From Muribaculaceae bacterium (GTDB taxonomy: Bacteria; Bacteroidota; Bacteroidia; Bacteroidales; Muribaculaceae): a stretch of 62,661 nucleotides of DNA. Each line of letters begins with the position of its first letter. The stretch's first letter is position 1. Shown piece by piece: positions 14,900 through 34,506 of the stretch. A program made the translations under genes and the position numbers. Below the pieces are notes generated by a model. That model was not told where the DNA came from, searched no databases, and saw nothing but the letters and a program-made list of their open reading frames with translations. Location: positions 1-62,661 of the forward strand of contig JAGAYZ010000068.1 in assembly GCA_017940245.1 (NCBI GenBank), read 5' to 3'.

Positions 14900-14913
14900 T
14901 CACATCATAAAGA

Positions 14914-15436: not shown

Positions 15437-15466
15437 TTGGTTAAAAATTTAATTGGGTTAAACAAT

Positions 15467-16249
15467 TCACTCCTCGATGGCCGGTTGTGGCTTCACGAGC
15501 AGTGCACTAAATTCATACAAAACGTAAATGGGCAGAAACACGATAGTGAGTGTGAACGGGTCGCCCGTGGGGGTGATGAATGCGGCCAAAACGAGCAACC
15601 CCACCACCGCATGTCTACGGTAACGCGCGAAGAACTCGCGGTGCAACAACCCCACGTTGCCCAGCAGCCACGACAGTAGCGGTAATTCGAATATCACGCC
15701 CATCACCAGCAGCAGCATCATGAACGTGTCTATGTAACTGTCGAGCGAAATCTGGTTGGGAACCATCGCGCTCACGTGGTAGTCGGCCAGAAAACGCAAG
15801 GTAACAGGAAACACCACAAAGTAGCCCACAGCCATGCCCAAGTAAAACATCACATTGCCCATGCAGAAGGCGACCTTCACACCTCGCTTCTCACTGGGGT
15901 ATAGCGCCGGAGCAACAAAGGTCCACAGCAGATACACCAGTACCGGGAATGAGAGCACAAGCGCCAGATAGAACGACGTGGACATGTGAATGAAGAATTG
16001 CGAGGCCAGTTGGATGTTGATTAAGTCTACATGAAAACCTTCGGTACTAAACGTCGGCACTCCGGGTATAGCGGCTGTCAACGAAGCAAAGAGACGATAC
16101 AGAACGAAGTCGCCACGACATGGTGCCAGAATCACACCATCGAAAATGCGGGGCATGAGGGCAAACAAAGCCACGGCCACGACGACGAGCACCACAGCCA
16201 TTTTCACCAGAACACCGCGCAGGGCATCCAGGTGATCCCAAAACGACAT
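15467..16249 (-). CDS. tatC: Sec-independent protein translocase TatC
   Basis: 260 aa with the start at ATG 16249 (MSFWDHLDALR, the usual TatC opening). An in-frame TTG at 16270 would add 7 residues. Six membrane segments and the conserved N-terminal WDHLDALR and FxExPLL-type (VIFELPLLSWLL) motifs identify TatC, the twin-arginine signal receptor of the inner membrane. It lies immediately after tatA; together they make a minimal TatAC system, and no tatB is visible here. Confidence 0.93.
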   Translation of the reverse strand: MSFWDHLDALRGVLVKMAVVLVVVAVALFALMPRIFDGVILAPCRGDFVLYRLFASLTAAIPGVPTFSTEGFHVDLINIQLASQFFIHMSTSFYLALVLSFPVLVYLLWTFVAPALYPSEKRGVKVAFCMGNVMFYLGMAVGYFVVFPVTLRFLADYHVSAMVPNQISLDSYIDTFMMLLLVMGVIFELPLLSWLLGNVGLLHREFFARYRRHAVVGLLVLAAFITPTGDPFTLTIVFLPIYVLYEFSALLVKPQPAIEE

Positions 16250-16273
16250 TTCCTGCAACTGCCCAGCCAACGT

Positions 16274-16498
16274 TTATTCTGTTTTTTCGGTCTTTCCCTT
16301 CGCCTCTTCGTCTACTGGACGCTTGATTTCTTCTTCGATGTCGTTCATTCCTTGCTTAAACGAGCGCACACCCTTGCCCAGTCCTTTCATCAACTCGGGT
16401 ATCTTCTTGCCGCCAAACAGCAGCAACACCACAAATACGATAATGATCAACTCGGTGGTGCCCAAGTTGCCCAAAAGCGACAAAATCATCATTTCCAT
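16274..16498 (-). CDS. tatA: Twin-arginine translocase subunit TatA/E
   Basis: 74 aa. It has a short N-terminal transmembrane helix (about residues 10-27), the [16 protein letters not shown] hinge and amphipathic helix, and an acidic/basic tail, as in TatA. It forms the pore of the Tat pathway with the next gene, tatC. In many Bacteroidetes one TatA-like protein serves both the TatA and TatB roles. Confidence 0.93.
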
Positions 16499-19726: not shown

Positions 19727-21733
19727 TTACTTGATCATTCTCTTCTCTGACGAAGTTGTTCCGTCACTATAATGAGTAACCTCAATATTCAATCCAGGGA
19801 ATGGTTTGCTGCTCATCATGCCCATCACGTTCACATAGGTCACACCCACTGGGTGCACCTCGGCACGCGGAGCCGTCACCGCCGTCACCAGTCCGTCGCC
19901 GCCCTCCAGCGGAAACACCATGTAGCGGCCCTCACTGGGCACGCCCTCGGCTCGGCGCGGTGCGGCGCTCGTCGACCCACCATTCGACACCCAGCGCACG
20001 ATGACGTGGAAGTCGTAGGTGTTGCCGGCAATGAAATCTTCGGCGGGATTGCCGGGATAGAGCGACCAGTCGACCGGGAAGCCACCGGCCAGCCCGTGCT
20101 CGTTGCCCATCGTTTGGCCGTCTACGGTCTTCTCCACCGTGAAGTGGTTCACGTCGTGGCCCTCAAACGTGGCCCAGTGCACCTTGCAATATTCCTGCGG
20201 CTTGGGCGTCATGAAGAAGAACTCGCCGTCGGCCACCGTCTGCACGTTGGGAGTCATGAAGTTGCACGTCACGTAGTGGTTCTCGGCATAGGCCTGCTCC
20301 TCGGTGGGCACCTCATAGGCCGTCACCGTCATCGTGGGGTTGAGCTGGTCGGTGAGCGTGCCCGTCAGGGTGCCGCCCTTAATGAGCTTGCCCACAAACT
20401 TCCGTGCCACAGCCTCGGTCTCGAAGCCCAGCAGCACCCAGTTGCTCTGATCCCACTCCTCGGTCTGCAGCCCGCAGCGCTCCACGTAGTCGTGCTGGTG
20501 CTCATAGCGGATGGCCTTGTCGCGATATTTGCCCAGGTCCTTGGCATATACCCGCGTCGGGTCCTTTTCGGCCACATACACGCCCACTAGGTCGTCGGCC
20601 ACGGTATAGGTCTCCCCCACGGTGCCCTCGTTCACAATCCACTCCAGCGGCGTGCCTGCCACGCTGAAGATGTAGCGAGCCATGTAGTAGCCAGGGAAAT
20701 ATTGATACACATACACGCTCTTCTCGTCCTTCGGCTCAGCTCTCAGCCAGTTGCACTGCGGACTTGCCGTTACCGGGATAGCCGTTTCGTAGTCGGCCGT
20801 GTGGGTGGCCACCACATTCACCGTTCCATCCAGGCTGCCGTCGGCATTTGTTCCCAGTTCGGCAACCACAAATCCATCGTTCCAGTTAGGCCGGGTAGTG
20901 AACAGGATATAATTCTTTCCGTTCATCGCAAAGCAGTTCACTCCGTTGCTGGTACCGAAACCGGGATATGCATGGGTGTTGATGGTTGTGGCCGTAGCCA
21001 CTTCGTGTCCGTTCAGCACCACGTCCACAGGATTCTCGGTGCGTTGCACAATCAGAAAGTGCTTCTGGCCGTTCACATCGGTCCATGAACTCACATAGTC
21101 TTCCCCCGAAAAAGGCTTGTCGGCTGCAGGCCCCATCATGAAAGGCATCGCCACCTGGTAGCCCTCGGTCAGTTCACCCGACTTGAATTCTACCACATAG
21201 AGGAACTCCACATTGGCGGCAACAAAGACCAGTTTACCGCCTTCGGCCGAGAATACGTCACCCTCGGCAAAGCCCCAGAAGTCGCCACGAGCTTGCGGTC
21301 GAGTCTTCGGCAACTTGAAATCCTTATATGTCGAACCGTCGGCCTTGACGATGCGAATCTCGTTCTGTGTGTAAGAATACGGACGTATATGATTAGGCAG
21401 ACGCAACAAGAAATTGCCTGCTTCGTCTCTGGTGAAGTTACACCCCTGTCCGCCATCGACCGCAAAATCGGCTACAAATCCATTCTGGCCGTAAATATGA
21501 ATCTTTTTCTGTTTCTGATCATGAATGAAGAATTGATTGTCGTGTCCGAAACCCTCACGGTTATAGGACCATTGTTCGCCTTCAGGAAGTTCGACAGTGA
21601 TGGGAACCTCTTCACTTTTCCATTCCCGGCTGAAATTGTAGCCATCGGCGGCCGTCTCTTCGGCACCGGCTTGCGGCAGTGCCACGCAGGCCAGCACCGC
21701 CATCATTGCAATTGTCTTTAATCTCGTTTTCAT
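19727..21733 (-). CDS. Large secreted protein with an N-terminal probable beta-propeller and a shared C-terminal module
   Basis: 668 aa, signal peptide ending in QAGA near residue 24. Residues 30-370 have the alternating strand pattern of a beta-propeller-like domain with short GY/FF-rich blades (inference). From L382 (LVGVYV) onward the protein matches the secreted protein at 22206-23297: LVGVYV, V-Y/F-AKD, QSNWV (429-433), K-x-GTLTG, then CNF and an F-V/M-x-PK block. The end (VTYVNVMG...PFPGLNIEVTHYSDGT) corresponds to RYVDVQG...PRPGVNICVTTYSDGT of that paralogue and looks like a short sorting or extension domain. Function unknown; probably surface or periplasmic. Confidence 0.8.
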   Translation of the reverse strand: MKTRLKTIAMMAVLACVALPQAGAEETAADGYNFSREWKSEEVPITVELPEGEQWSYNREGFGHDNQFFIHDQKQKKIHIYGQNGFVADFAVDGGQGCNFTRDEAGNFLLRLPNHIRPYSYTQNEIRIVKADGSTYKDFKLPKTRPQARGDFWGFAEGDVFSAEGGKLVFVAANVEFLYVVEFKSGELTEGYQVAMPFMMGPAADKPFSGEDYVSSWTDVNGQKHFLIVQRTENPVDVVLNGHEVATATTINTHAYPGFGTSNGVNCFAMNGKNYILFTTRPNWNDGFVVAELGTNADGSLDGTVNVVATHTADYETAIPVTASPQCNWLRAEPKDEKSVYVYQYFPGYYMARYIFSVAGTPLEWIVNEGTVGETYTVADDLVGVYVAEKDPTRVYAKDLGKYRDKAIRYEHQHDYVERCGLQTEEWDQSNWVLLGFETEAVARKFVGKLIKGGTLTGTLTDQLNPTMTVTAYEVPTEEQAYAENHYVTCNFMTPNVQTVADGEFFFMTPKPQEYCKVHWATFEGHDVNHFTVEKTVDGQTMGNEHGLAGGFPVDWSLYPGNPAEDFIAGNTYDFHVIVRWVSNGGSTSAAPRRAEGVPSEGRYMVFPLEGGDGLVTAVTAPRAEVHPVGVTYVNVMGMMSSKPFPGLNIEVTHYSDGTTSSEKRMIK

Positions 21734-22205: not shown

Positions 22206-23297
22206 CTAAAACAACAACTTCTCCGTGAGCACGGTGCCATCGCTGTAGGTGGTCACACAGATGTTCACGCCCGGTCGTGGCTCGGCAGCCACATGGCCCT
22301 GCACATCCACGTAGCGCACGCTCTGCACTGCGGCTCCCGTGCGCACCTGCTCCACACCGGTGATCACCTCCGACGTCAGGCGCAGCGGAAACACATAGGC
22401 GTGATAGCCTTCGGGCAGTGTGCCCTCATTGCCATAGTCATATCCATCAGCCTCAGCACGCCGGGGCGCATAGTTGATGTCACCGTCAAAACCGGGATCG
22501 ATGTTCAGACTCACGTTGTTGCCCGTGCTGAACTCTATCAGAGCCGGAAATTCATACAGGTAATGGGGCTTGAAAACGTCGTCGGCCGTCACGGTGTTGC
22601 CATCGGTCTGCTCTTCCCACATGATCATGTCCACCGTGAAACTGCCCGGCAGATTGGCCGAGTTCACGCCAGCCTCGCTCTTGGGCACGATAAACTTTCC
22701 ATCGCCGGCATATACAGCCCAGCGGATGTTGGCCAACTCCAGGTTTTTGGGTTTCACAAAGAACCATTCGGGCTGGTGCACGAAGTTGCACGTGCAGTAG
22801 GTATTATAGTGGTAGGTGTTATCCGGCCCAATCTGCGGATAGGCCACCTTGCTTCCATTCACTTCAACATCCACATCCACAAACAGGCCCACGGGACCGG
22901 CAGGTGTGTTGGCGATGTGGAACTGGCCGGTCAGTGTGCCGGCCTTTATCTCCTTGCCCTCGTAGGCCGACGCGTCGTAGCCCTCGGGGAAGTATATCTT
23001 TACCCAGTTGCTCTGGCTGAACTCGCCCACTTTGTCATAGACCACATCGGCCGCCACCTGTTCGTCGCTAGGTGTGGAGCGGCTCACACTGGTATTGTTG
23101 TTCTTGTCTTTGGCAAACACCACGTTTTTGTAGCGTGGCGGGACGTAAACACCCACCAGGGTATTAGACACCGTAAAGAAGTCATCCAGCTTGCCTGTCG
23201 AGATGATATCGCGCAACTGTTTGCTGGGTGGTGTTTGGGCACTGGCCACGGTGGCCAGCGCGAGCATAACGATCAATGTCAAGTAATGTTTTTTCAT
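22206..23297 (-). CDS. Secreted protein sharing the C-terminal module of the 668-aa neighbour
   Basis: 363 aa from ATG 23297 (MKKHYLTLIVMLALATVASA, signal peptide). An upstream in-frame ATG at 23342 would place 15 charged residues before it and is less likely. Shared landmarks with the 19727-21733 protein are LVGVYV (from L47), V-F-AKD, QSNWV (95-99), KAGTLTG, CTCNF, WFFVKPK, NYAPRRAE and a C-terminal RYVDVQG...YSDGT block. It also contains IDPGFDGDINY, the phrase with which several fimbrillin-like proteins upstream end. Function unknown; the context suggests a surface-associated accessory of the fimbrillin-like operon. Confidence 0.78.
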   Translation of the reverse strand: MKKHYLTLIVMLALATVASAQTPPSKQLRDIISTGKLDDFFTVSNTLVGVYVPPRYKNVVFAKDKNNNTSVSRSTPSDEQVAADVVYDKVGEFSQSNWVKIYFPEGYDASAYEGKEIKAGTLTGQFHIANTPAGPVGLFVDVDVEVNGSKVAYPQIGPDNTYHYNTYCTCNFVHQPEWFFVKPKNLELANIRWAVYAGDGKFIVPKSEAGVNSANLPGSFTVDMIMWEEQTDGNTVTADDVFKPHYLYEFPALIEFSTGNNVSLNIDPGFDGDINYAPRRAEADGYDYGNEGTLPEGYHAYVFPLRLTSEVITGVEQVRTGAAVQSVRYVDVQGHVAAEPRPGVNICVTTYSDGTVLTEKLLF

Positions 23298-23372: not shown

Positions 23373-23615
23373 TTCAAGTTCGGCAAGTAGCCATGTTGGC
23401 TCGTGTTAAAGTTCCTCTTCGAGGCACTCTGTCTCTGCCCGCTTGTGACCAAGCTGCGAACCCCGTCAGGGTTCTTGCATGGTCTTTAACACATAATGCC
23501 TCTTCCGAGGCATCAAGCGCCCTCGACGCATTTCCTCGTTTTACCAACACTTCAATCAACTTGCAGAACTTGATTTCTTTTCTTGTTCTTGTTCCGATTC
23601 TTTTCTTGTTCGGCT
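23373..23615. other. Hairpin-rich noncoding stretch
   Basis: Several small perfect stems lie in series: GAACCC/GGGTTC around 23460 and GCCTC/GAGGC around 23500, together with repeated GTTAAAG/CTTTAAC phrases. A 61-codon ORF on the minus strand (23374-23559) spans it but has no signal, promoter or domain and is probably fortuitous. Possibly part of an intergenic repeat family. Confidence 0.4.
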
Positions 23616-23676
23616 GGATTTGTAATCCGGCAGCCGGCTAATGGCGGATTTGCAATCCGCTTGCCCTCCAGGGCAA
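23616..23676. repeat. REP-like palindromes (GGATTTGYAATCC)
   Basis: GGATTTGTAATCC (23616-23628), GCGGATTTGCAATCCGC (23644-23660) and the adjoining stem TTGCCCT-CC-AGGGCAA (23661-23676). Copies of the same palindrome lie at 31841-31967 and a relative at 60481. They resemble REP/BIME elements mobilised by RAYT transposases. Confidence 0.75.
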
Positions 23677-23713
23677 CTGCCATCACAGGGGCATTATGCC
23701 TCAATTTAATAAA

Positions 23714-23740
23714 GAGGGTGCCAGTGCCCCCGGCACCCTC
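23714..23740 (-). terminator. Terminator at the end of the fimbrillin-like operon
   Basis: A 9-bp stem, GAGGGTGCC (23714-23722) with GGCACCCTC (23732-23740), with a 9-nt loop, lies 38 bp beyond the stop of the last fimbrillin-like gene. On the minus strand it is followed by TTTATTAAATT. Confidence 0.7.
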
Positions 23741-23778: not shown

Positions 23779-25581
23779 TTATGGTTTATAGATGCCCCAC
23801 TCGTCGCGGCTGTTATTAACCGTCACAGTTTCCCAAATGGCAGGAGCATCAGAATGAGCATACAAATATGATCCATCAACAGCATCATTCATCACATTGT
23901 TCTCAACTGTAATGTTCAAGTTGTAATAAGCCTCTTGACGTGAATCTAAAGCAAGTCCATAATTGACTTTACTTGGATTAGCATTGACAATGTTATTCTT
24001 AAAAATCAATTGACTTGCAGGATTTGCTGCAGTATAATGGTTTACTTGAACAGCATATTTCTTTGGTTGATTAAATGTGCAGCCTTCGATTGTGTTAGAC
24101 GAACCATTGCCAATCTGAAGTGGTTTTGCATTACCTTCGCAATTAAATGTACAATTTTTCACTACAGCAGTAGTGGCTTGATCGCCCCAGGTCACAATAC
24201 CTGTTGCTTTTCCATTTGAATCCGCAATGTTAAAAACACAATCTTCAACAATAAGCTTTACTCCTCCAAAAATATAAATAGATGCAACCTCAGAGCCTGA
24301 ACGATAATAGTGAGTTGCATCACCCTTTGTGTTTGTGTTTGTTGTCTTGGTCAGCGTAAGCCCCTTAATCGTCATTGAACTACCAGTTGCAACTTTCTGT
24401 GCCGAACTTGCGCTCATGGCAAAACGGCCATTGATGGTAATGTCGGCAGGACTCACACCATTTGCAGCCTGAACAGTAACATTAATCACCTTGTTTTGGT
24501 TCTCAAATGCAAAGTTATTATCCATTGTATATGTACCTTTTGCAAGAGTCATAACAATGTCGGTAAGGCCAGCTTCAAGTGCTGAATTGTAAGCAGCTTC
24601 AATGGATTCATACTTTTGGCCATTCATGGTCACTACATTTGTCACCTCAGGATATTCGATGTTATTGTCGGGCTGGTCGAAGCGCTGGTCGATGATCACG
24701 TTGAAGTTCACGTCTTCGGTGAACAGGTTGCCCAGGATGTTGGTGCGGTGGTTCTTCTTCACAGGAACGCTTTCCACTGTGAGTTTGTTGAACTCAGCGC
24801 CGGCTGTGTTGAGCATCGACAGCTCGGTGGTAACGGTAGCCTCATCATTAGGAACCAGGAAGTAGCACATCGAGAGCCACTTGTAGGTGTCTTCTTCCAC
24901 TTTCAGGTCTTCGCTCATCACCGAGTTGGCGGCAGCCCAAGTGATGTCGGCGTTCGTGCCAGTGGTGGTTTGATTCAGGATATCATACTGATTAGCCACT
25001 TGCTTCACGGTGACAACGGTCTGCTTGATGTCGATGCCGGCCTCAACAGCAGCCTCGTAGTCGGCCACAACGTCACCATAGTTGAGCTGAGCAAATGGAC
25101 GGGTAAGAGTGATAGTCTTGTTGATAGGACCAGTGATCTCAAGATTCATCTCGCGGTTGCTGAAGGCGTCGCCGTCGTCGGCATTGGCCACAGCCTTGCT
25201 GTAATCTACAGTAACTTTACCGGTAGTAGCATCGAAGGTATAGGCATCCTCGTCAGGGTTCTGTGCCCAGAAAGCGAAGCTATACTTCATGCCCTTAACA
25301 AGCTTGAAATTCACGGTAGCTTTTCTGTCGGTCATGGTCACGGCCTTGTCGCCCAGCAGACTCACGTTCTGCAGCAGCGTGCCGTCTTCTTTGTATACGG
25401 CCACTTGCAACTTGGTGGCGGTGAGACCGTCGCTGATAGTACGGCTCTCGATAGCGCCGGGAAGTTCGATGGTGAACTGCACGTTTCCATCGCCTGTCAT
25501 CTCGGGCTCCATGTCGCTGGAGCAAGATGCGGTGCCCAGCAGCATTGCTGCCACAGCACCCAAAAACATTAATTTCTTCAT
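23779..25581 (-). CDS. Fimbrillin-like (DUF6562-type) lipoprotein with C-terminal parallel beta-helix
   Basis: 600 aa from ATG 25581 (MKKLMFLGAVAAMLLG, lipobox TASC with Cys20); a GTG lies in frame at 25590. Residues about 30-290 are the fimbrillin-like domain: VQFTIELPG, then ESR with Arg47, an FAFWAQ strand, TLTRPFAQLNYGD, CYFLVPNDEA, VKKNHRTNILGNLFT and FNVIIDQRFD. From about 315 a linker (YESIEAAYNSALEAG) leads into a right-handed beta-helix rich in N, T, V and I turns such as VVKNCTFNCEG and NTIEGCTFNQ. The helix part is visibly more AT-rich than the stalk (22/60 G+C at 24121-24180 against 32/60 at 24721-24780). Last gene of the operon. Probably a surface adhesin or pilus-tip-like protein; ligand unknown. 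Confidence 0.83.
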   Translation of the reverse strand: MKKLMFLGAVAAMLLGTASCSSDMEPEMTGDGNVQFTIELPGAIESRTISDGLTATKLQVAVYKEDGTLLQNVSLLGDKAVTMTDRKATVNFKLVKGMKYSFAFWAQNPDEDAYTFDATTGKVTVDYSKAVANADDGDAFSNREMNLEITGPINKTITLTRPFAQLNYGDVVADYEAAVEAGIDIKQTVVTVKQVANQYDILNQTTTGTNADITWAAANSVMSEDLKVEEDTYKWLSMCYFLVPNDEATVTTELSMLNTAGAEFNKLTVESVPVKKNHRTNILGNLFTEDVNFNVIIDQRFDQPDNNIEYPEVTNVVTMNGQKYESIEAAYNSALEAGLTDIVMTLAKGTYTMDNNFAFENQNKVINVTVQAANGVSPADITINGRFAMSASSAQKVATGSSMTIKGLTLTKTTNTNTKGDATHYYRSGSEVASIYIFGGVKLIVEDCVFNIADSNGKATGIVTWGDQATTAVVKNCTFNCEGNAKPLQIGNGSSNTIEGCTFNQPKKYAVQVNHYTAANPASQLIFKNNIVNANPSKVNYGLALDSRQEAYYNLNITVENNVMNDAVDGSYLYAHSDAPAIWETVTVNNSRDEWGIYKP

Positions 25582-25610
25582 ACTTTTCACTGTTATTTTT
25601 GAGATTTTAT

Positions 25611-25642
25611 CTCATGGCTGGCATCCGTCCACCAGCCATGAG
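25611..25642 (-). promoter_or_regulatory. Intercistronic hairpin within the fimbrillin-like operon
   Basis: A perfect 11-bp stem, CTCATGGCTGG (25611-25621) with CCAGCCATGAG (25632-25642) and a 10-nt loop. It is not followed by a U tract on the minus strand, so it is more likely an RNA-processing or stabilising element, or a partial attenuator, between the two beta-helix genes. Confidence 0.6.
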
Positions 25643-25693
25643 ACAGTTATTAAAAAATCAATCAGTTAATCTATTATTCAATCTGTAGTCAGA

Positions 25694-27994
25694 TTACTCT
25701 TGCTTCTTAGTGCAACCAGTAACTTTCACCAAGTCATAGTAATCAGCACGATCTTCATCATTCCAAACGGCATTCACATTATCGGCAGCAACTTTGCTAA
25801 TATCGAGATTGCTGGCAGTGATTTTAGCACCTGCTGTATTGGTGACAAGGATGGCACCTTTCTTTGCAGTTTCAAAAGTGCAACCACTAATGTTAATATT
25901 GCATTGTACACGGTTTGCTTCATCTACATATTGATCTATCACTTTGATGCCGCGTCCACCTTTAGTAGCAATGAATTTACAATCCTTAATCGTTGTATTC
26001 TTAACGTTGGCATTAACCATGAATGTATAGAATGCACCCGGCTCATTGAATGTGCAGTTCTCAACAACAGCGTCATTTTGAATAGCGACAGAATTATTGA
26101 AGGTTACATTTTGTAGATATATCTTGCCTGAAGTAAGATCATTTGAGCCATTGCCATTTCTGTTTGACAAATTGATGGCATGATTATTCCAAGCACCATT
26201 TCCTCCTTCGGTTTTATATACTGTCATATTCTTTAGAATCAGATTACCATTCCAGGCTCCAAAGCTACTCCAGTCAGTATCAGTGCCGCGCAAATTCAGC
26301 GTGTGTCCATTTCCATCAATAGTGACGCTTTGGGTATTAGCATCGCCATAATTAGTACGAGCACCATAATGGAGTTCCATATCATTCATCAGCTTGACTG
26401 CGATGTTTTTCTTGCCAGTTGCTTTGAGCGCAGCTGTCAGTTCACTTTCAGTGCTCACCTCTACCGGGGTGATGGGTTGAACTTTGTACCAGTCGCCATC
26501 TTGAACTGACTCATAACCAGGAGCCACAAAGTTAGTGCCAGCACCTTCAGCCTTATTATTCTCTGGATCAAACTTATAGAATTTGCCACCAGCCACTTCG
26601 ATTGAAGCGGTACCATTTCTTCTATTTTCATCGAGAAGATTAAGTTCAAAATTATAGCCCTCATCAGCATTGTCAAGTTGCTGAATGTTATATGAGCCAC
26701 CATTCACTTTGGCAGTTCCTTGAGCCACATACAATGCTGTAAGATTTCCATTATAATCTCCACCATTAACGACCAAGTTTCCATTTTTCCACACATCTAC
26801 GGCAAAGCAATCATTCGCCTTAGCAGCAACCTGACCATCACCATTAATAGTGAGATTTCCACCAAGCACCGAGATTAATGCATAGTTCCCTTTTGATTCA
26901 TTCCAAATATCAGTGGTATTGCTGATATTATGGCCATTCAAGTCAAGTGTTGCAGTGCATTCTGCAGGAACAACGATAGGCTTATCAATAACAAGATCTT
27001 CGGCAAGTGCATAAGAACCGAAGCCCATTGCAATCAGTGCGTTAATCTCGTCGGTAGTCATGCCGGCTTTGAGCATCAGCTTGCCATTAACGATGTCGTA
27101 ATCGTAGTTGTCGAAGTTCTGGTCGATGATGATGCGGAAGTTGCTTTCTTGGGTGAAGAGTGAGCCAACGATGTTGGTGCGGTGGTTCTTCTTCATGGGA
27201 ACGCTGGCAACGGGAACAACAACGTCGGCCTTGTTGGTCTTGACGGTCATTTCCACGTCAACGTTGGCCTCGTTGTCGGGCACCAGGAAGTAGCACATCT
27301 CCATCCAAGCGTAGTCCTTACCTTCTACGGTGAGCGTAGCTGGATCATTGGGAAGCGCTGCGAGAGCGTACTCAACATCGGCCTCGCCAGTAGCTTCTTC
27401 GGTGAAGAGACCGAAAGTGGTAGCGGCTTTCTTTACGGTCACCATGCTCTGGCTGGGCGTGATGCCGGCAGCAGCGGCTGCTTCCAGATCATCGGCACCA
27501 AAGTTGAGCTGAGCGAACGGACGATACAGCGTCACATCGGTAGTAGTGGCAGTCACCTCATAGTCCTTGACCGTTGCATAGAATGCATCGCGCTTCTCGT
27601 CGTTGCAACCTCCTGTGTAGTTAACTTCAAATTCACATCCATCCATGTTCTCGCCAGGAGTGAAGGTGTAAGGAGCGCCATCAGCATGGGCGAAGAAAGC
27701 GAAGTTGTACTTCTGACCTTTCACGAGCTTGTAGGTCACTGTGGCTACACGGTTCTCGAAGTCGGTCTTCACCGTAGGCTCCACGGCCAGCTTGTTGCCA
27801 TCGGCATCGTAGCAAGCCACATCGAGCTTGGTGGCTGTGGTGCCATCGCTGATGGCACGGCTCTCAAAACCACCGGGAAGTTCAACCTTAAATTGCACTG
27901 TGCCGTCGGCCAGTTGCGGCTCCATGTCGCTGGAGCAAGACGCGGTACCCAGCAGCATTGCTGCCACAGCACCCAAATAAATGAATTTCTTCAT
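25694..27994 (-). CDS. Fimbrillin-like (DUF6562-type) lipoprotein with long beta-helix
   Basis: 766 aa. The signal peptide MKKFIYLGAVAAMLLG...Cys20 is nearly identical to that of the next gene. The stalk domain (about 30-300) has VQFKVELPG, ESR with Arg46, TLYRPFAQLNFG, CYFLVPDNEA, MKKNHRTNIVGSLFT and FRIIIDQNFDN. Residues after about 310 form one or two beta-helix segments, separated near residue 510 by a second Ala/Leu linker (VEVSTESELTAALKATGKKN) that looks like a fresh helix cap. The 3' part is AT-rich, the 5' part GC-richer. Function inferred as a surface adhesin; closely related to the 600-aa neighbour by duplication of at least the stalk. Confidence 0.83.
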   Translation of the reverse strand: MKKFIYLGAVAAMLLGTASCSSDMEPQLADGTVQFKVELPGGFESRAISDGTTATKLDVACYDADGNKLAVEPTVKTDFENRVATVTYKLVKGQKYNFAFFAHADGAPYTFTPGENMDGCEFEVNYTGGCNDEKRDAFYATVKDYEVTATTTDVTLYRPFAQLNFGADDLEAAAAAGITPSQSMVTVKKAATTFGLFTEEATGEADVEYALAALPNDPATLTVEGKDYAWMEMCYFLVPDNEANVDVEMTVKTNKADVVVPVASVPMKKNHRTNIVGSLFTQESNFRIIIDQNFDNYDYDIVNGKLMLKAGMTTDEINALIAMGFGSYALAEDLVIDKPIVVPAECTATLDLNGHNISNTTDIWNESKGNYALISVLGGNLTINGDGQVAAKANDCFAVDVWKNGNLVVNGGDYNGNLTALYVAQGTAKVNGGSYNIQQLDNADEGYNFELNLLDENRRNGTASIEVAGGKFYKFDPENNKAEGAGTNFVAPGYESVQDGDWYKVQPITPVEVSTESELTAALKATGKKNIAVKLMNDMELHYGARTNYGDANTQSVTIDGNGHTLNLRGTDTDWSSFGAWNGNLILKNMTVYKTEGGNGAWNNHAINLSNRNGNGSNDLTSGKIYLQNVTFNNSVAIQNDAVVENCTFNEPGAFYTFMVNANVKNTTIKDCKFIATKGGRGIKVIDQYVDEANRVQCNINISGCTFETAKKGAILVTNTAGAKITASNLDISKVAADNVNAVWNDEDRADYYDLVKVTGCTKKQE

Positions 27995-28114
27995 AAATAA
28001 ATAGATTTAATGATTATTGTGAAAATGTTAATTGTTTCTTTTTTAGCTACTGTTATAGCCACGAACTACAAGTTGAGCAAGGCGGCGAATTCGCATCAGG
28101 AAAGAAACCTGATA

Positions 28115-28165
28115 AAAGAATCTGCACAATCTGCGAGATCTGCGTGAGTTCACAGCCCACAGTTC
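28115..28165. repeat. Inverted copy of the CACGCAGATCTCGCAGATT repeat
   Basis: The plus strand reads AATCTGCACAATCTGCGAGA then TCTGCGTGAGTTCACAGCCC, the reverse complement of the element at 23328. Both lie just downstream of minus-strand genes in the same locus. Confidence 0.8.
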
Positions 28166-28173
28166 ACAGCCCA

Positions 28174-29202
28174 TCAATAGTTGATGTCGCCGCCGGTGCT
28201 GGGGTCTATCTCAAAAGCTACTTCCACCAGCGTGGTGATGTTGGACACATGCACCACCGTGCGGTGATTGCGCTGTATGGGCAATTTATCAACTGGAACT
28301 TTCACAGGCTTCTCCAGCAGGCCGAAGGTGTAAATATTCATCTGGGCGTGGTCGAGCACAGTGACATCGGGCGATGCCAGCACATAGTTCATCGACAACC
28401 AGAAGTTGTCACCGCTTTCGGTGGCAAACAAATCCTGATACTGGTCGGTGCCCACTTTGCTCGTTATAAAACCGCAGAAGTCGTAGGTGTCTTTGTTGTG
28501 CTTCTTCCAGTACTGAGGCAGCTGCAGCGTGAACGCCTCGGTAGTGGGCTGGCTGGCCTCGCCGGTGAGCAAGTTGAGATGTGTGAACGCTCCGGCAGTA
28601 ACGTTGAGGTCGCTGCCGATAAGCTTATAATTGGAGCTGTGCAGCTTTTTCCACTCATCAAGGTCGCACACAAAGTCAATTTGCGCAAAGGGGCGACGCA
28701 GGGTCACTTCTTTTTCAATCGGGCCGGTGATGGGCTGCGTGGCATAGTCGGCCACTACGGCACAGAAGGCGTCGCGACGCTCATCGTTGGCCTCACCGTT
28801 ATAGTTCACCACCACATCCTTGAGGTTGGTGGTGTTGTAGAAGCCGTTGTCGGTGAGGTTCTCTCCCACTTTCTTCTGTGCCCAGAACACGAAGGTGTAG
28901 TTCTGTCCACGAGCCACCGAAGTCTTCACTGTGGCCTCACGTCCTGTGATGGCCACATCGTTCTGCCGCAACGCTGCCAGCTCGTTGCCCTCGCTGTCGA
29001 AGACGGCAAAGATGAGTTGGTCGGCTGTGGTGCCGTCGCCGTTGGCGCGACTCTCGATGCCATCAAGGTTTACGGTGAACTCCACGCTGGCCTGTTCCTG
29101 TGTGGGCTGCGCCGGCTCGTTGGCCTCGCTGCTGCATGCTGCAGCCACCATCATCATGCTTGCCGCGGCAAGCCATAGTTGTATCTTTTTCATCTTGTTC
29201 AT
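28174..29202 (-). CDS. Fimbrillin-like (DUF6562-type) lipoprotein
   Basis: 342 aa. The lipoprotein signal ends AAACSS with Cys23 when starting at ATG 29202; an internal ATG (29193, MKKIQLWL) is an alternative. An AGGAGG lies just before the first ATG, unusual in this phylum. VEFTVNLDG and ESR (Arg52), then TLRRPFAQIDFV, match the fimbrillin-like stalk. It ends right after IDPSTGGDINY, without a beta-helix. The length suggests a structural shaft or anchor subunit. It is separated from the preceding gene by 12 bp. Confidence 0.82.
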   Translation of the reverse strand: MNKMKKIQLWLAAASMMMVAAACSSEANEPAQPTQEQASVEFTVNLDGIESRANGDGTTADQLIFAVFDSEGNELAALRQNDVAITGREATVKTSVARGQNYTFVFWAQKKVGENLTDNGFYNTTNLKDVVVNYNGEANDERRDAFCAVVADYATQPITGPIEKEVTLRRPFAQIDFVCDLDEWKKLHSSNYKLIGSDLNVTAGAFTHLNLLTGEASQPTTEAFTLQLPQYWKKHNKDTYDFCGFITSKVGTDQYQDLFATESGDNFWLSMNYVLASPDVTVLDHAQMNIYTFGLLEKPVKVPVDKLPIQRNHRTVVHVSNITTLVEVAFEIDPSTGGDINY

Positions 29203-29214
29203 TCCTCCTCGATG

Positions 29215-30342
29215 TTATTTAGCTATCAATTGAACACCCGGCCAACTCACCACTTGGGGAACTCGCGTATATCGCGCTGCCGTGGGCTTCAAGGGTGACA
29301 TGTTGCGCTTGTTTTCTACAATCACATTGAGGTAATCCTCGAAGTTCTGGTCGATGACTACACTGAACGTGACATCGGTCAGCAGGTAGTCGAGCAGTAT
29401 ATTGGTGCGCTTATTTCCATATACCATGATTCCCTTGTCCTCACCAAATTCCAACGGGCCTATCGTGGTGCCATCGGCCAGTTCTATTTCTATGGATGTC
29501 TCTATCTGCTCGCCATCCATTTTGGTGAGGAAATAATTAAACGCCAACCACACAAATTCGCGATACTGGCTATTGTCGGGGTCAACTGGGTCATCCCACC
29601 ACACTTCGGTAATCTTTCTGTTGGGAATGTCGTTCATGTTGAGTTCAAAATAGACATCGGTCCAGTCGGTCGACGTTTTCACCGGTCCACTTTGCAACAG
29701 TCCAAACTGCATATATGCCTTACTCACCCACACGCGAGTTTTGGCTCCGGTGAGATCGACACCTGCATCCTTCATGGCCTGGAACGCGTCGCTCAGTTCG
29801 TCGTGAGTAATGCCAAAGTTAAGTTGAGTGAAGGGACGACGCAGCGTGATTTTGCGTTGCACCATGTCGCCATCGGCCGAAACCTCAATGCCTTCGGCCT
29901 TAGCATAGAAGGCATCACGATCATCGTCGTTGCAAATCACGGGATTCTCGTCGTCGCCAAAATAGTCAATTTTGATCACATCTGAGTTGCTGGTGTCATA
30001 CACTTTGCAGCCTTTGTGTTGCGCCCAGAAGGCAAAACTGTACTTGTGACCCGGTGTGAGGGGCACCTGCACGGTGGCCGTGCCGTTGTTGTTGAACGCA
30101 ATGTTGTGCTGACGCAAATCGGGCAACTCCACGTTGTTCTCGTCATAGACCCAGAAGAAGAGTTCATTGGCCTTCTTGCCGTCGCCTATGGCACGCGAGT
30201 CGATGTAGCCGGGCAACTGGGCGGTGAACTCTACCATCACCTTGTCGCCGCCGAGCGTTCCGGGCTCGTCTTGGGCGCAGGAGGTGGCGAGCAGGGTCAT
30301 TGCCGCCAGAGCCATCATGCAGAAAATTTTTGTTTGTTTCAT
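29215..30342 (-). CDS. Fimbrillin-like (DUF6562-type) lipoprotein
   Basis: 375 aa. The signal peptide MKQTKIFCMMALAAMTLLAT leads to Cys22. Domain landmarks: VEFTAQLPG, DSR (Arg50), YSFAFWAQHKG, TLRRPFTQLNFG, NKRTNILLDYLLT and FSVVIDQNFEDY. After the terminal IDQNFE strand about 36 further residues follow, rich in Pro, Arg and Val, without beta-helix character. Overlapping promoters are not seen; it is 27 bp behind the first operon gene. Confidence 0.82.
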   Translation of the reverse strand: MKQTKIFCMMALAAMTLLATSCAQDEPGTLGGDKVMVEFTAQLPGYIDSRAIGDGKKANELFFWVYDENNVELPDLRQHNIAFNNNGTATVQVPLTPGHKYSFAFWAQHKGCKVYDTSNSDVIKIDYFGDDENPVICNDDDRDAFYAKAEGIEVSADGDMVQRKITLRRPFTQLNFGITHDELSDAFQAMKDAGVDLTGAKTRVWVSKAYMQFGLLQSGPVKTSTDWTDVYFELNMNDIPNRKITEVWWDDPVDPDNSQYREFVWLAFNYFLTKMDGEQIETSIEIELADGTTIGPLEFGEDKGIMVYGNKRTNILLDYLLTDVTFSVVIDQNFEDYLNVIVENKRNMSPLKPTAARYTRVPQVVSWPGVQLIAK

Positions 30343-30369
30343 ATTGCTATACCTTATTTATAAATATTG

Positions 30370-31344
30370 TCAAAAGAAAATGTTGATGTCACCGTCGAAG
30401 TCGGGATCGATGCCGATGCCGCCCCCGCTGGCGGTCTTGGTGAGAAAGTGGCCGGTGATGGTGGTGATGCCGCCGCGCCGCAGGGGCACGGTGAGCGTGC
30501 CGGTGCGGCTCACCTGCTTGCCGTCGTCGTCGTAGAGTCCCAGCGCCACCTGCACACTGCCCTCGTCGCCGTTGACCATGACCAGGTCGGTAGCCAGAGT
30601 GGCGCTGCCGTCGCCCTCAGTGCTGAGTTCGCTCATGGTGGACAGGAACGAGATACCGGTGGTGGCGTCGAAAGGTACGCCGCGCAACACGCTGTAGTGG
30701 TTGGGCAGGAAGCCGGGATAGGCCACCAGGATGCGCAGGGACTGCGGCTTAGCGAGCCACTTGTTGTAGTCGGTGGCCACAAACTTGATTTTGCCCATCA
30801 CGCTACGCAGCGCCAGCGTCTCGCGAATCACCGTGGTGGTGTCGCCCGCGGGCACACTGAAGTTGACGGCCGCACTGCCGGCATAGGCGTTGCGGCGGTC
30901 GTTGCCACCCTGGTAGGTGCCCAGCAGGGTGATGTCGGAAAAATTGGTGGTGTTGTAGTATTTGTCGGCCGTGGTGCCGGCATCCACGTGGTCGGCCCAC
31001 GCCAGGATGCGGTAACGGCCCGACGGCAGCGTCATGCGGCACTCGCCTTGCCGACCGGCGGCGGTGAAAACCACTGTGGCTTGTGCCGCAGGAGTGGCGG
31101 CCAGAGTACCGGTCGCGCTCTCGGCATAGGCACGCACCTGGCAGCGCAGGTCGGTGGCCGTGGAGCCGGCGCGCGACTCGTCGTCGATGGTCTTAAAGGC
31201 CACCATGGCGGTGTCGAGCTGCAAAGAGACAACTACCGGGGCGGACCCAAATTTGGGTTCGTCCGGCTCTTCGCCCTTGCTGCTGCATGCACTTAGCAGG
31301 CAGGAAATCATGCAGATTGCAAAGGCGGCCACCAGTGACACCAA
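30370..31344 (-). CDS. Divergent fimbrillin-like lipoprotein, first gene of the operon
   Basis: About 324 aa. No ATG opens this frame at the expected place. The frame offers TTG 31344 or GTG 31341 just before a hydrophobic stretch ending LLSACSS (Cys20). Starting there, the N-region lacks basic residues, which is odd for a signal peptide. Seven Gs (31369-31375) lie upstream, and an ATG at 31426 would join this frame if the tract lost one G. The mature part has the fimbrillin-like pattern (YRILAWADHV, DESR at R58, ALRSVMGKIKFVATD) and ends IDPDFDGDINIFF. The most diverged of the five; an anchor or initiating subunit is plausible. Confidence 0.72.
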   Translation of the reverse strand: MVSLVAAFAICMISCLLSACSSKGEEPDEPKFGSAPVVVSLQLDTAMVAFKTIDDESRAGSTATDLRCQVRAYAESATGTLAATPAAQATVVFTAAGRQGECRMTLPSGRYRILAWADHVDAGTTADKYYNTTNFSDITLLGTYQGGNDRRNAYAGSAAVNFSVPAGDTTTVIRETLALRSVMGKIKFVATDYNKWLAKPQSLRILVAYPGFLPNHYSVLRGVPFDATTGISFLSTMSELSTEGDGSATLATDLVMVNGDEGSVQVALGLYDDDGKQVSRTGTLTVPLRRGGITTITGHFLTKTASGGGIGIDPDFDGDINIFF

Positions 31345-31482
31345 TCGGTGATTTAATGGATTTCTATACCCCCCCGATTCTGCGTAAAGAGCTGATTTTC
31401 AATAATTTACTACAAGAGTAGCACATTATTATAGTTTTTCAGGTAGTTATTTATTACGCTATTCAATGTTACTTTACGGCCG

Positions 31483-31511
31483 CAAAGTTACAACATTATT
31501 TTAAAAAACAA
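31483..31511 (-). promoter_or_regulatory. Promoter of the fimbrillin-like operon
   Basis: The minus strand reads TTG (31509-31511), 18 bp, TAACTTTG (31483-31490). It predicts a leader of roughly 130 nt before the first gene, containing an ATG at 31426 and the G7 tract. Confidence 0.7.
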
Positions 31512-31758: not shown

Positions 31759-31838
31759 TTCTCGGAGTTCTCGGAGGACTCGGAGACCTCAGGAGTTCCC
31801 GAAGTTTCCGAAGTTTTCGAAGTTTCCGAAGTTCTGTT
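31759..31838. repeat. Degenerate 9-bp-period repeat array
   Basis: About nine units drifting from CTCGGAGTT/CTCGGAGGA/CTCGGAGAC to TTCCGAAGT/TTTCGAAGT. It is the longest of the arrays in the window and has no codon-like structure. Confidence 0.7.
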
Positions 31839-31840
31839 CG

Positions 31841-31967
31841 CCTGGATTTGCAATCCAGGCGCAGGGTAACCAGCGGATTTGTAATCCGCCTGCCCGTGAG
31901 GGCTACCGCCGCGCCAGCGCGGAGATTACAAATTCCCCATTAAATCCTGGCGGATTGCAAATCCGCC
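31841..31967. repeat. REP/BIME-like palindrome cluster
   Basis: CCTGGATTTGCAATCCAGG (31841-31859), GCGGATTTGTAATCCGC (31873-31889) and GGCGGATTGCAAATCCGCC (31949-31967). The third is in inverted orientation relative to the first two (GGATTGCAAATCC against GGATTTGCAATCC), the arrangement seen in bacterial interspersed mosaic elements. Confidence 0.75.
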
Positions 31968-31974
31968 AAAACTG

Positions 31975-32012
31975 AACCACCACATCTTGCGACGTGGCGC
32001 GATGCGGTGGTT
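31975..32012 (-). terminator. Probable terminator after the C11 protease gene
   Basis: AACCACCACATC (31975-31986) pairs with GATGCGGTGGTT (32001-32012), one G-U allowed, loop 14 nt. On the minus strand it is followed by CAGTTTT. It lies 66 bp past the protease stop. Confidence 0.55.
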
Positions 32013-32077: not shown

Positions 32078-33217
32078 CTACTGCACTGGGGTGGCTATCG
32101 CCTTGGCCCAGTCGAGGGTGACGTAGTAGTCCTCGTTCACGTCTGGCGACGTGCCTGGCACGTAGGTCGACAGCCCTGAGAAGCGGTCGGTGTCGATGAG
32201 GATGCGGTTGAACACAGTGCGCGTTGCCACCTTGTAGAGCACTACTTTATTATATAATGCCTGCAGTTCGGCCGCCTGCTCGGTTGTGGCGCACGCCTGT
32301 GTGTACTGCACAAAATCGTAGAGGAAATGATAACCATTCAGGTTGTAGCACTGCATGCCGGCCAGCGACGGTCGCTCGGTGTCGTCGGCATGGATGCGGC
32401 GGCACAACGCGGCCAGCGCATCGAGCTGCGCGCAGTCGACCACCGCTGCAGTGAACGTGCGGTCGTTGCCCGACTGGGCGTTATAGTGGTCAAAGGTAGC
32501 CCGACAAGCCTCGGCCAGCTGGGCCTGCTGAGCACAAAGCATCGGCAAGGTGACATCGTAGGGCATGCCACGGGCCGGGATCTCGGTGGGATAGCCCACG
32601 AAGTAGCGACAACGGTCACGCAACTGGTAGGCCACCTCCACGGCACCCATATAGCACACGTCGGCATAAATCCACGAGAACACGCCCTGCGGGATGGCAC
32701 CGGCCAACACGTGCAGCGGCATGGTGGCACCATTGTCCTCGCCGAACACACGACGCGGGGCGGCCGCCTTGGTGGTGAGCGACGGTGCCCATCCGGTGGC
32801 GTGAGACCAGAGCACCAGGCCATAGTCCTGCGCCGGAGCGTAGCGGCGCGCGTCGGCAATGACTTCGCTCATGCGCTCGGCCGTGACCGAGGCACACTGT
32901 GTCGACGGATATACCTCCAGCACCTCATGCACAGCCGTGCCATGCTTGTTTTTTTTGATTTCAAACAGCGTGGGGTTCTGTTCACCGGGAGCCACGCGAT
33001 AAACCAGCCAGCGGCAACCATTCAGCCCGCCGGCCGTCACGGCCCGATCCATTTCGTCAAGGTCTTGCTGGTCGCGCTCATTGGCGCCCAGACTGTTGGT
33101 GGCCACCATATACACCAGCACCGTGCGACGCGCAGGCGTTGCGGGCGTGTCGGGCTCATCACTGCTGCATGCCGCAAGCAGCAGACACAGCGAGAGCAGT
33201 AGAAGTGTCTTTTTCAT
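32078..33217 (-). CDS. Clostripain-family (C11) cysteine peptidase lipoprotein
   Basis: 379 aa. The lipoprotein signal ends LLLAACSS (Cys17). The caspase-like core carries the catalytic dyad His139 in LVLWSHATGW and Cys188 in ADVCYMGA. Family C11 enzymes (clostripain, PmC11, fragipain) cut after Arg or Lys and are often autoprocessed. The start of the gene is 23 bp downstream of the T9SS plug gene, so the two form an operon. Immediately downstream lies the fimbrillin-like operon, whose products carry a conserved Arg at a possible maturation site. A role in fimbrillin processing is an inference from position and specificity. Confidence 0.87.
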   Translation of the reverse strand: MKKTLLLLSLCLLLAACSSDEPDTPATPARRTVLVYMVATNSLGANERDQQDLDEMDRAVTAGGLNGCRWLVYRVAPGEQNPTLFEIKKNKHGTAVHEVLEVYPSTQCASVTAERMSEVIADARRYAPAQDYGLVLWSHATGWAPSLTTKAAAPRRVFGEDNGATMPLHVLAGAIPQGVFSWIYADVCYMGAVEVAYQLRDRCRYFVGYPTEIPARGMPYDVTLPMLCAQQAQLAEACRATFDHYNAQSGNDRTFTAAVVDCAQLDALAALCRRIHADDTERPSLAGMQCYNLNGYHFLYDFVQYTQACATTEQAAELQALYNKVVLYKVATRTVFNRILIDTDRFSGLSTYVPGTSPDVNEDYYVTLDWAKAIATPVQ

Positions 33218-33240: not shown

Positions 33241-34506
33241 TCAATTGATGGAACGCGCCAGCCCGTAGCCCACGAGCTGGTCGTAGCGCCCCCCACTGGG
33301 GCGGTGATAAACCAGCACCATGTACTGGTTCACGGTCTGAAACTTGTCGCCGTCGATAGGAGCCGTCTGCCCCACCCTGCTACCGTCGGGCACCCACAGA
33401 TACTGGTAGTTGTAGGCTCCCTGCTTGAGCAACATGTCGTTGACATAGCATCCGCTGGCAGGATCATATTTCATCACCGTGGTCGATGCCGGCAGGCCGT
33501 GAGTAAACTCGCCCTCGAGGAAGATGTGGCCTCCCTCCACAGGGCCGGCCGTGTTGAGCGAGAAATGAGTCACCACATAGTCGGCATCGATGCGGCTGTC
33601 GTTGCCCTCGGCATTGCGTATGGTGAAGTGGCCGCGTTGCGTCTGGTCGTAGAGATACTGCATGCTGTGGCGAGGCTCGTCGGTATAGAGCGTGGCATGG
33701 TAGAAGGGCTGCACATAGTCGATGGCAGCCACACCCATATTGAGCGAGTGGATGTTTACTGTCTCGAAACGACGGTACTCGTTGCCGGCATTGAAGATGA
33801 GCTCGGGCTGGTGCTCATAGGTCACCGTGCCGATGCCGGCACTCAACGGGCGACGCAAGACCACGGCATTGTCGGTGCGTGTGTTCTGAAACACGACGGT
33901 GGTCAGCTCGCCATAAGGGTCGGCTATGACGCCGGGCTTGTACTGCAAGTTGATCGACAGCTGCTGGTGGGCGTCGTTGTAGGTCTCGTCGGTGCGGCTG
34001 TTCACGTCGGTGAGCACCGTCACCCGCGGCTCGCACACCATGAAGCGTGTCTGGAAGAGCACCTTGTCGGGGTCGTCCTGCTCATAGACGCGCAACACAT
34101 AGTTGCCACTGCGCGTAAACTGCATGTCGGGGTTGGGCAATGAAAACGAGTAATTATAATAATGTGTGAAGGTGGACTCGCTCTGCAGGTAGTCGGTCAC
34201 GTCGGCATAGTTGAATCCCTCGACATACTCGCTCTCCTGCAACTGCGATGGCTGCCACAGCGCGTCGCAGTGCTGCAGACTGTAGCGCAGGTAGTGCACA
34301 TCATAGTCGATGTAGTCGAAGTTCACCTCCAGATAGTCGTCGCTGCCCAGCACCAGCACGGGCGGCAAATACATGTTGCTGGCCGGAGCCACCTTGAGCG
34401 ACCGCACATTGCTGTCGAAAATGGTCACCCGCGTGTCGGCTGTGGCTTGAGCCCACCCCTGCACAGCCAGCACACAAGCCAACGCAAACAATATTACTCG
34501 GTTCAT
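33241..34506 (-). CDS. Type IX secretion system plug protein (DUF5103)
   Basis: 421 aa, signal peptide MNRVILFALACVLAVQGWA. The sequence matches the DUF5103 family: an N-terminal RSLKVAPASNMYLPPVLVLG region, then HYNYSFSLPN, RVYEQDDPDKVLFQTRFMV and a C-terminal LLKQGAYNYQYLW segment. Family members cap the periplasmic side of the SprA channel of T9SS. It starts the plug-protease operon. No other T9SS core gene is present in the window, so the system itself must be encoded elsewhere. Confidence 0.85.
   Translation of the reverse strand: MNRVILFALACVLAVQGWAQATADTRVTIFDSNVRSLKVAPASNMYLPPVLVLGSDDYLEVNFDYIDYDVHYLRYSLQHCDALWQPSQLQESEYVEGFNYADVTDYLQSESTFTHYYNYSFSLPNPDMQFTRSGNYVLRVYEQDDPDKVLFQTRFMVCEPRVTVLTDVNSRTDETYNDAHQQLSINLQYKPGVIADPYGELTTVVFQNTRTDNAVVLRRPLSAGIGTVTYEHQPELIFNAGNEYRRFETVNIHSLNMGVAAIDYVQPFYHATLYTDEPRHSMQYLYDQTQRGHFTIRNAEGNDSRIDADYVVTHFSLNTAGPVEGGHIFLEGEFTHGLPASTTVMKYDPASGCYVNDMLLKQGAYNYQYLWVPDGSRVGQTAPIDGDKFQTVNQYMVLVYHRPSGGRYDQLVGYGLARSIN

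What the first reader, a model, noticed from the sequence alone, without database searches (positions are those of the whole stretch)
23779..31344. Five-gene operon of fimbrillin-like lipoproteins, two ending in beta-helices
All five products have a lipobox, an SR-containing strand about 24-40 residues after it, and a terminal (I/V)ID-x-x-F strand or FDGDIN end. Two of them continue into long parallel beta-helices. Shaft-like subunits plus helix-bearing 'heads' in one operon suggests a surface appendage or adhesin array. The fimbrillin-like (DUF6562-type) label is family recall; the head/shaft model is inference.
Basis: partly seen in the sequence, partly recalled or inferred. Interest (0 to 1): 0.72.

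Follow-up and report, generated by a model that had tools for sequence, protein, structure and literature searches.

The report
Pilus operon with swappable beta-helix heads
A gut bacterium carries a gene set that most likely builds short surface pili tipped with interchangeable sticky heads, next to a protease that probably trims the parts so they can assemble; the general kind is known, but the head swapping and the linked protease are a new variation.

Summary
The finding is real. All five ORFs pass Pfam's DUF6562 cut-off; P4 and P5 end in beta-helix domains. They belong to a larger locus, C11 (clostripain) peptidase - P1 - P2 - P3 - headed pilins - X1 - X2, conserved in related ruminant-gut genomes. 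The "SR strand" looks like the type V pilin processing site: 36 of 36 genus pilins with a recognised lipobox have it, shuffled mean 0.5. Close C11 genes occur in 11 of 12 DUF6562 genomes and 2 of 89 others, and border P1 in 10 of 10 contigs holding both. Heads are cassettes: near-identical stems carry heads without detectable similarity, and P5 shares a 73%-identical head but 36%-identical stem with another species. Head GC3 is below stem GC3 in 23 of 23, suggesting import. Best reading: a type V-like pilus locus with a linked processing protease and exchangeable tip heads. Not shown: fold (structure prediction was off), shaft identity, cleavage, assembly, ligand. Outside the genus a DUF3575-anchor-headed-pilin form is usual and in one record lies among glycan-degradation genes.

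The parts
32078..33217 (-). C11 (clostripain-family) peptidase lipoprotein, candidate pilin-processing protease
   Evidence: PF03415 8e-25; His139, Asp186 and Cys188 invariant in 4 of 4 aligned orthologs, their assignment as catalytic and S1 residues is recalled; profile matches solved C11 peptidases; neighbour of P1 in 10 of 10 genomes with both on one contig
31482..31490 (-). Bacteroides-type -7 promoter element TAACTTTGC upstream of P1
   Evidence: TAnnTTTG(C/T/A) upstream of P1 in 10 of 10 loci, 1.9 of 10 expected after base shuffling, maximum 6; the motif itself is recalled
30370..31344 (-). P1: short DUF6562 lipoprotein, likely anchor
   Evidence: DUF6562 6.4e-66; P1-class proteins match Mfa2 (E up to 0.1) in 11 of 19 against 2 of 20 pilin stems
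29215..30342 (-). P2: headless DUF6562 pilin, likely connector or stalk
   Evidence: DUF6562 1.3e-8; 9 of 9 P2 genes are 330-375 aa
28174..29202 (-). P3: DUF6562 pilin, headless here, in G004 and in G081, headed in 6 relatives
   Evidence: DUF6562 1.4e-13, Mfa2 1.4e-6; relatives
27113..27994 (-). P4 pilin stem (residues 1-294)
   Evidence: DUF6562 1.1e-12; split at the IIDQNF strand
25694..27112 (-). P4 beta-helix head (plus stop)
   Evidence: Pectate_lyase_5 1.8e-5, over cut-off; GC3 0.37 against 0.65 in the stem
24679..25581 (-). P5 pilin stem (residues 1-301 from the ATG at 25581)
   Evidence: DUF6562 4.2e-14
23779..24678 (-). P5 beta-helix head (plus stop)
   Evidence: Beta_helix 2.1e-6, over cut-off; 73% identical to the head of a G040 pilin whose stem is 36% identical; GC3 0.33 against 0.69
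23714..23731 (-). Terminator-like hairpin after P5
   Evidence: such hits are not enriched over shuffles (11 found, 12.5 expected)
22206..23297 (-). X1: conserved downstream exported protein, no Pfam or NCBIfam match
   Evidence: Orthologs at 46-53% identity (some as partial segments) in 8 other genomes, all with DUF6562, so 9 of 12 DUF6562 genomes; no family at E up to 1
19727..21733 (-). X2: conserved downstream exported protein related to X1, no Pfam or NCBIfam match
   Evidence: Follows X1 in 8 relatives' loci; X2-like without X1 in G004; no family at E up to 1

Best explanation
A type V-like (Bacteroidota) pilus locus of the DUF6562 branch. P1-P5 are exported as surface lipoproteins. The linked C11 peptidase cuts after the Arg at the end of strand beta-1 ((D/E)SR|(A/T)); removal of beta-1 opens a groove that a strand of the next subunit fills. 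P1 is the lipid anchor, P2 (and headless P3) connector or stalk, P4 and P5 alternative tip subunits whose C-terminal beta-helices act as binding heads. The head array evolves by cassette exchange: AT-rich heads are joined to native stems at the last fimbrillin strand. Shown by sequence: family membership, lipobox, conserved Arg site, C11 linkage and co-occurrence, synteny, head modularity and GC3 contrast. Inferred: cleavage by C11, strand exchange, subunit roles, tip position, horizontal origin of heads. The ligand is unknown; a glycan is a guess.
For: DUF6562 in all five, beta-helix heads in P4 and P5. Arg site in 36 of 36 lipobox-bearing genus P2-P5 types (11 of 47 ORFs dropped) and by a looser regex in 21 of 25 outside the genus (no chance control); it matches the described type V layout, a beta-1 strand followed by Arg (PMC5789003, abstract and passages). 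[quoted passage not shown] Close C11 in 11 of 12 DUF6562 genomes against 2 of 89 others, Fisher 6e-12, relatedness not corrected. Synteny. Head modularity. GC3 lower in 23 of 23 heads. Mfa2 link without signal peptides: anchors 62.6% global and 49.9% local, pilins 37.7% global and 62.7% local, C11 controls at most 0.5%; the Mfa2 alignment itself hits solved structures 4qdg, 3gf8, 3pay and 5nfi.
Against: No structure model. No pilin found in the PDB by sequence. DUF6562 against Mfa_like_1 at most 1.7% without signal peptides. P1 also carries (D/E)(S/A)RA in a longer loop, whereas the known anchor Mfa2 has no site, so P1 may be cut too. No Trp in the last 60 residues of P1 or P3 or before the P4/P5 heads, unlike many known type V subunits. 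C11 occurs without DUF6562 in G129 and G094, and in G027 lies on another contig. No C11 borders the pilins in 20 loci outside the genus. In G226 headed pilins are dispersed. P3-type heads stay with P3-type stems, so not every head moves.
Confidence: 0.72

Rival explanations
1. Stalkless mini-adhesins: one anchor binds one headed pilin directly and no filament forms; the heads are alternatives for the same anchor.
For: In about 15 of 20 loci outside the genus (my reading, two with an extra short DUF6562 gene) one anchor is followed by one headed pilin; in G226 at least six headed pilins on five other contigs accompany one detected anchor.
Against: The window's genus keeps a headless P2 in position 2 in 9 of 9 loci where that position was read, which suggests a connector or stalk.
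Confidence: 0.35
2. Decorated shaft: headed pilins polymerise and carry heads along the filament instead of only at the tip.
For: At least four headed genes in some loci against two or three headless ones (P1, P2, sometimes P3); the same last strand (I/V)IDxxF ends the stem in headless P2 and in headed pilins.
Against: [quoted passage not shown]
Confidence: 0.15
3. Separate surface lipoproteins (binding proteins or glycan-capture proteins) that do not assemble.
For: Heads resemble pectate-lyase-like folds; a DUF3575-DUF6562-DUF6562 trio lies among SusD, heparinase II/III-like, HTCS and sulfatase genes in a B. finegoldii record.
Against: The conserved Arg site after a hydrophobic strand and the linked C11 protease have no clear role in this model.
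Confidence: 0.12

Closest known systems
Porphyromonas gingivalis Mfa1 fimbria (Mfa1-5), type V pili
   Same: Multi-gene locus of surface lipoproteins; beta-1 strand ending at an Arg processing site; anchor, stalk and tip division; Mfa5 is a large tip protein (PMC5789003 and PMC7835359, passages).
   Different: Different Pfam family (DUF6562); a clostripain-type gene is linked, instead of gingipains encoded elsewhere (latter recalled); several exchangeable beta-helix heads; no conserved C-terminal Trp; P1 keeps an Arg in its loop.
Gut Bacteroides type V pili with diversified tips
   Same: Clostripain processing and C-terminal ligand-binding domain on tip pilins (PMC12632263, section 14).
   Different: There tip diversity is attributed to diversity-generating retroelements (ref. 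165 of that review, not held); here whole heads differ between near-identical stems. I ran no search aimed at a retroelement.
Fragipain and related surface clostripains
   Same: Surface C11 protease that processes lipoproteins (PMC12632263, passages of section 13); profile match to solved C11 peptidases.
   Different: The review calls Fpn orthologs conserved in species of the phylum; in this genus C11 is found in 17 of 101 genomes, 11 of them with DUF6562.
DUF3575-DUF6562-DUF6562 loci of other Bacteroidales
   Same: P1-class protein followed by a headed DUF6562 pilin.
   Different: DUF3575 is present upstream in 19 of 20 loci; in the window's genus DUF3575 is absent from 11 of 12 DUF6562 genomes and C11 is upstream instead.

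Membership tests
Pfam DUF6562 (PF20200) | Score over the curated cut-off of 25 bits | tested here: met
   5 of 5 window proteins
Type V pilus | Subunits are lipoproteins with acidic residues after the Cys (surface export) | tested here: met
   5 of 5 window proteins by reading; 36 of 47 genus P2-P5-type ORFs by regex, the rest truncated, wrongly started or missed; the lowest have 2 acidic residues in +1 to +8. Lipidation itself not tested
Type V pilus | Beta-1 strand followed by an Arg or Lys processing site in polymerising subunits | tested here: met
   36 of 36 lipobox-bearing genus pilins, 21 of 25 by looser regex outside; sequence only
Type V pilus | Two beta-sandwich domains | tested here: inconclusive
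   Structure prediction off; moderate profile link to Mfa2, none to Mfa_like_1
Type V pilus | Anchor subunit without processing site | tested here: inconclusive
   P1 keeps (D/E)(S/A)RA in a longer loop
Type V pilus | Conserved Trp before the C-terminal residues (PMC5789003, passages) | tested here: not met
   No Trp in the last 60 residues of P1 or P3 or before the P4/P5 heads; the P2 Trp lies in a tail that its relatives lack. The paper calls it common, not obligatory, and notes that Mfa4 lacks it
Type V pilus | Tip subunit with extra C-terminal domain | tested here: met
   P4 and P5 heads; tip position not tested
Type V pilus | Polymerises by protease-triggered strand exchange | not testable with these tools
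   Needs biochemistry or microscopy
Mfa2 anchors (PF08842) | Score over the curated cut-off of 21.2 bits | tested here: not met
   P1 18.0 bits; P3 does pass, 28.5 bits
Peptidase C11 (PF03415) | Score over cut-off, and His/Cys pair present | tested here: met
   88.6 bits against 25.8; His139 and Cys188 invariant in 4 of 4

The most novel reading that the evidence does not exclude
A polymorphic-adhesin system: native pilin stems act as constant sockets onto which AT-rich beta-helix heads from outside are repeatedly spliced at one fixed strand, and a dedicated C11 protease encoded beside the anchor licenses each stem-head fusion for display. One anchor with a changing set of heads would let these bacteria retool surface binding by recombination instead of by retroelement mutagenesis.
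Probability: 0.4. Interest if true: 0.66.

Novelty: new variant of a known kind. Interest (0 to 1): 0.52.

Why it matters
It gives the unnamed family DUF6562 a likely role (pilin stem and anchor), offers a locus where the pilin-processing protease travels with its substrates, and shows a second route, head cassette exchange, by which gut Bacteroidales may diversify pilus tips. The cleavage site and protease make a direct biochemical test possible.

Tried and rejected
PDB sequence searches with P1, P3, the profiles A4-A7 and the two heads gave no pilin; the A4 profile hit 3n6z, deposited as a putative IgA1 protease, E 9e-4, over the head part. Profile comparisons that included signal peptides were discarded as inflated, since an unrelated lipoprotein control reached 68.5% through its signal peptide alone; one search repeats them without (cut at the recognised lipobox, or at residue 25 where none was recognised). 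There Mfa2 against Mfa_like_1 scores only 2-3%, so the method is weak at this distance. Phase variation: inverted repeats near the promoter look like short AT palindromes; no invertible segment is claimed. Phage origin of the P5 head: no match in 50,697 phage records. Donors of the heads: the P5 head has no match at 1e-8 in the 383 other genomes of an order-wide sample; the P4 head has matches in 2 of 383, G373 and G226, partly within DUF6562 pilins. X1/X2 as type IX cargo: end motif shared with large exported proteins, but no sorting model hit, so left open. The first Arg-site count was pre-selected and is replaced. My expectation that the L068 pair has unrelated heads was wrong: they match at 32% over 194 residues. 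One search returned nothing through my own indexing error, repeated; one search was an empty placeholder. Not in print: the one search for DUF6562 found 0 papers; in the listings that I saw (those of 21, 46 and 92 capped) no title or abstract start describes head exchange in such loci. The library lacks most subscription papers.
Full report
OBSERVATION. All five pass the DUF6562 cut-off, and P4 and P5 also pass the cut-offs of Pectate_lyase_5 and Beta_helix. They are the only DUF6562 matches found in the 2.7 Mb, 80%-complete genome that contains the window. The end motif is exact in four of five; P3 deviates (EIDPSTGGDINY).

THE LOCUS IS LARGER. Upstream lies a C11 peptidase lipoprotein (33217-32078), and downstream two conserved exported proteins, X1 and X2. 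Reading relatives' contigs, the order C11-P1-P2-P3-headed pilins-X1-X2 is on one contig in G040, G107, G109 and G081 besides the window; G031 and G092 are split over two contigs; G027 starts at P2 and G083 within a headed pilin; G086 and G114 show only C11 and P1 before the contig ends. In G004 the contig with C11-P1-P2-P3 continues into an X2-like gene, and its headed pilins lie on another contig. Records found by name are labelled Muribaculaceae, Prevotellaceae, Bacteroidales or Barnesiella, where a source is given from goat or roe deer gut. P3 is headless in the window, G004 and G081 and carries a head in six other genomes. P2 is headless in 9 of 9.

THE PROTEASE LINK. Among 101 genomes of the genus, DUF6562 occurs in 12 and a close C11 ortholog (48% identity or more) in 13. 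Eleven have both. The DUF6562 genome without C11 is G083 (72% complete, DUF6562 match at a contig end); G129 and G094 have C11 without DUF6562; G047 has a broken C11 remnant and no DUF6562. Fisher p = 6e-12; with every C11 by Pfam (17 genomes) p = 9e-10. Neither corrects for relatedness. Where both lie on one contig they are neighbours in 10 of 10 (8 same strand; G114 and G086 divergent). In G027 C11 sits on another contig and P1 was not found. C11 and P1 divergences track each other (Spearman 0.93, 45 pairs), which shared species history alone can explain. Outside the genus I read 20 loci: 19 of the 23 other genomes with a match (four with weak or partial matches left out) plus L046. No C11 borders the pilins there (0 of 20), while DUF3575 is present in 19 of 20. 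Within the genus DUF3575 is missing from 11 of 12 DUF6562 genomes. A TAnnTTTG promoter element lies upstream of P1 in 10 of 10 loci (1.9 expected after base shuffling, maximum 6), so P1 probably has its own promoter.

THE SR STRAND. In P2-P5 types the segment after the lipid Cys runs: acidic stretch, alternating hydrophobic strand, then (D/E)(S/A)R(A/T/S), then usually I-(S/G/A)-D-G. Of 47 such ORFs of the genus, 36 have a lipobox recognised by my regex, and 36 of 36 have the site; shuffling residues gives a mean of 0.53 and a maximum of 6 in 2000 rounds. They are related sequences, 15 clusters at 60% identity. Eleven ORFs were dropped (truncated, wrongly started or missed by the regex); 3 of these still show the site. 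Outside the genus a looser regex finds an (S/T/N/A/L)R(A/S/T/G) within 50 residues in 21 of 25 (no chance control); three of the four misses have an Arg with other neighbours. This is the described type V layout, in which an Arg at or after beta-1 is cut and beta-1 is removed (PMC5789003, abstract and passages); in Bacteroides the surface clostripain is said to do this (PMC12632263, section 14). That the window's C11 cuts here is inference.

SUBUNIT ROLES. P1-class proteins match the Mfa2 anchor model (E up to 0.1) in 11 of 19, pilin stems in 2 of 20. With signal peptides removed, anchors against Mfa2 give 62.6% end to end (E 1e-5, 284 columns) and 49.9% locally, pilin stems 37.7% and 62.7%, C11 controls at most 0.5%; against Mfa_like_1 DUF6562 reaches at most 1.7%. 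Anchors and stems are clearly one family (99.8%). So P1 is the likely anchor. Against it, P1 keeps an Arg in a longer loop. P2 is the best stalk or connector candidate. The Trp common near the C-terminus of known type V subunits is absent. Roles remain inferred.

HEADS ARE CASSETTES. I split 23 headed pilins of the genus near the (I/V)IDxxF strand. At E 1e-3 stems match in 253 of 253 pairs, heads in 82 of 253. Two tandem G081 genes share stems at 95% with no head match; two tandem G109 genes 87% with none; window P5 and a G040 gene share heads at 73% with stems at 36%. Along these genes identity falls or rises near the junction. Three of the four stem clusters with more than one member carry two to four of the six head clusters; the fourth, the P3 type, keeps one head cluster. 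In another genus, the G311 pair (L068) has stems 97-100% identical over the first 270 residues, and heads that match at only 32% over 194 residues. GC at third positions is lower in the head than in the stem in 23 of 23 genes (mean 0.54 against 0.73; window P4 0.37 against 0.65, P5 0.33 against 0.69); total GC is lower in 17 of 23. Import of AT-rich heads explains this, but compositional constraint of beta-helix sequence may contribute, and P3-type heads differ little. The genes are related, so 23 is not 23 independent events. No donor was found.

WIDER DISTRIBUTION. In 392 genomes sampled across the order, DUF6562 occurs in 24 (22 over the cut-off), 16 of 205 genera. By my reading, about 15 of 20 loci have one P1-class gene followed by one headed pilin; in two of these an extra short DUF6562 gene intervenes, and in two the P1-class gene was masked in my ORF list and is taken. 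In G226 at least six headed pilins lie on five contigs other than that of the anchor, so linkage is not universal. In a Bacteroides finegoldii record listed as a plasmid, DUF3575-DUF6562-DUF6562 stands among SusD, two heparinase II/III-like proteins, an HTCS regulator and a sulfatase; one further locus (L073) has a sulfatase next door (which tested one neighbour each of 8 loci, chosen by eye). This is a lead towards glycan binding, not evidence for the window.

VERDICT. A type V-like pilus locus of the DUF6562 branch, with a linked candidate maturation protease and exchangeable tip heads: a new variant of a known kind. The fold, cleavage, assembly and ligand are untested.

Noticed in passing
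In 4 of 4 own-genome cases read they lie at the C-terminal end of large ORFs, one an alpha-amylase; a possible unrecognised sorting or surface module.
   Followed up: partly
L105 (Bacteroides finegoldii NZ_OY725945.1) 1246-16408: A DUF3575-DUF6562-DUF6562 trio embedded in a polysaccharide-utilisation-like locus with SusD, two heparinase II/III-like proteins, HTCS and a sulfatase.
   Followed up: partly
window 31831-31977 and about 23610-23680: Intergenic palindromic repeats built on GCGGATT...AATCCGC on both sides of the pilin operon (for the first; the second seen by eye); probably a dispersed repeat family.
   Followed up: no
L112-L117 (genome G226): Several large headed DUF6562 pilins dispersed over contigs; two (L113, L115) have stems 94% identical and no head match at E 1e-3.
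   Followed up: partly
L057 (G047:C117): Broken C11 remnant with in-frame stops in a genome without DUF6562, as expected if both are lost together.
   Followed up: no
window 6079-13292: Adjacent Omp85-family and TamB-like genes, a TAM-like export pair.
   Followed up: no
window 33241-34506: Type IX secretion system plug protein (NCBIfam 2.9e-113) just upstream of the C11 gene.
   Followed up: no
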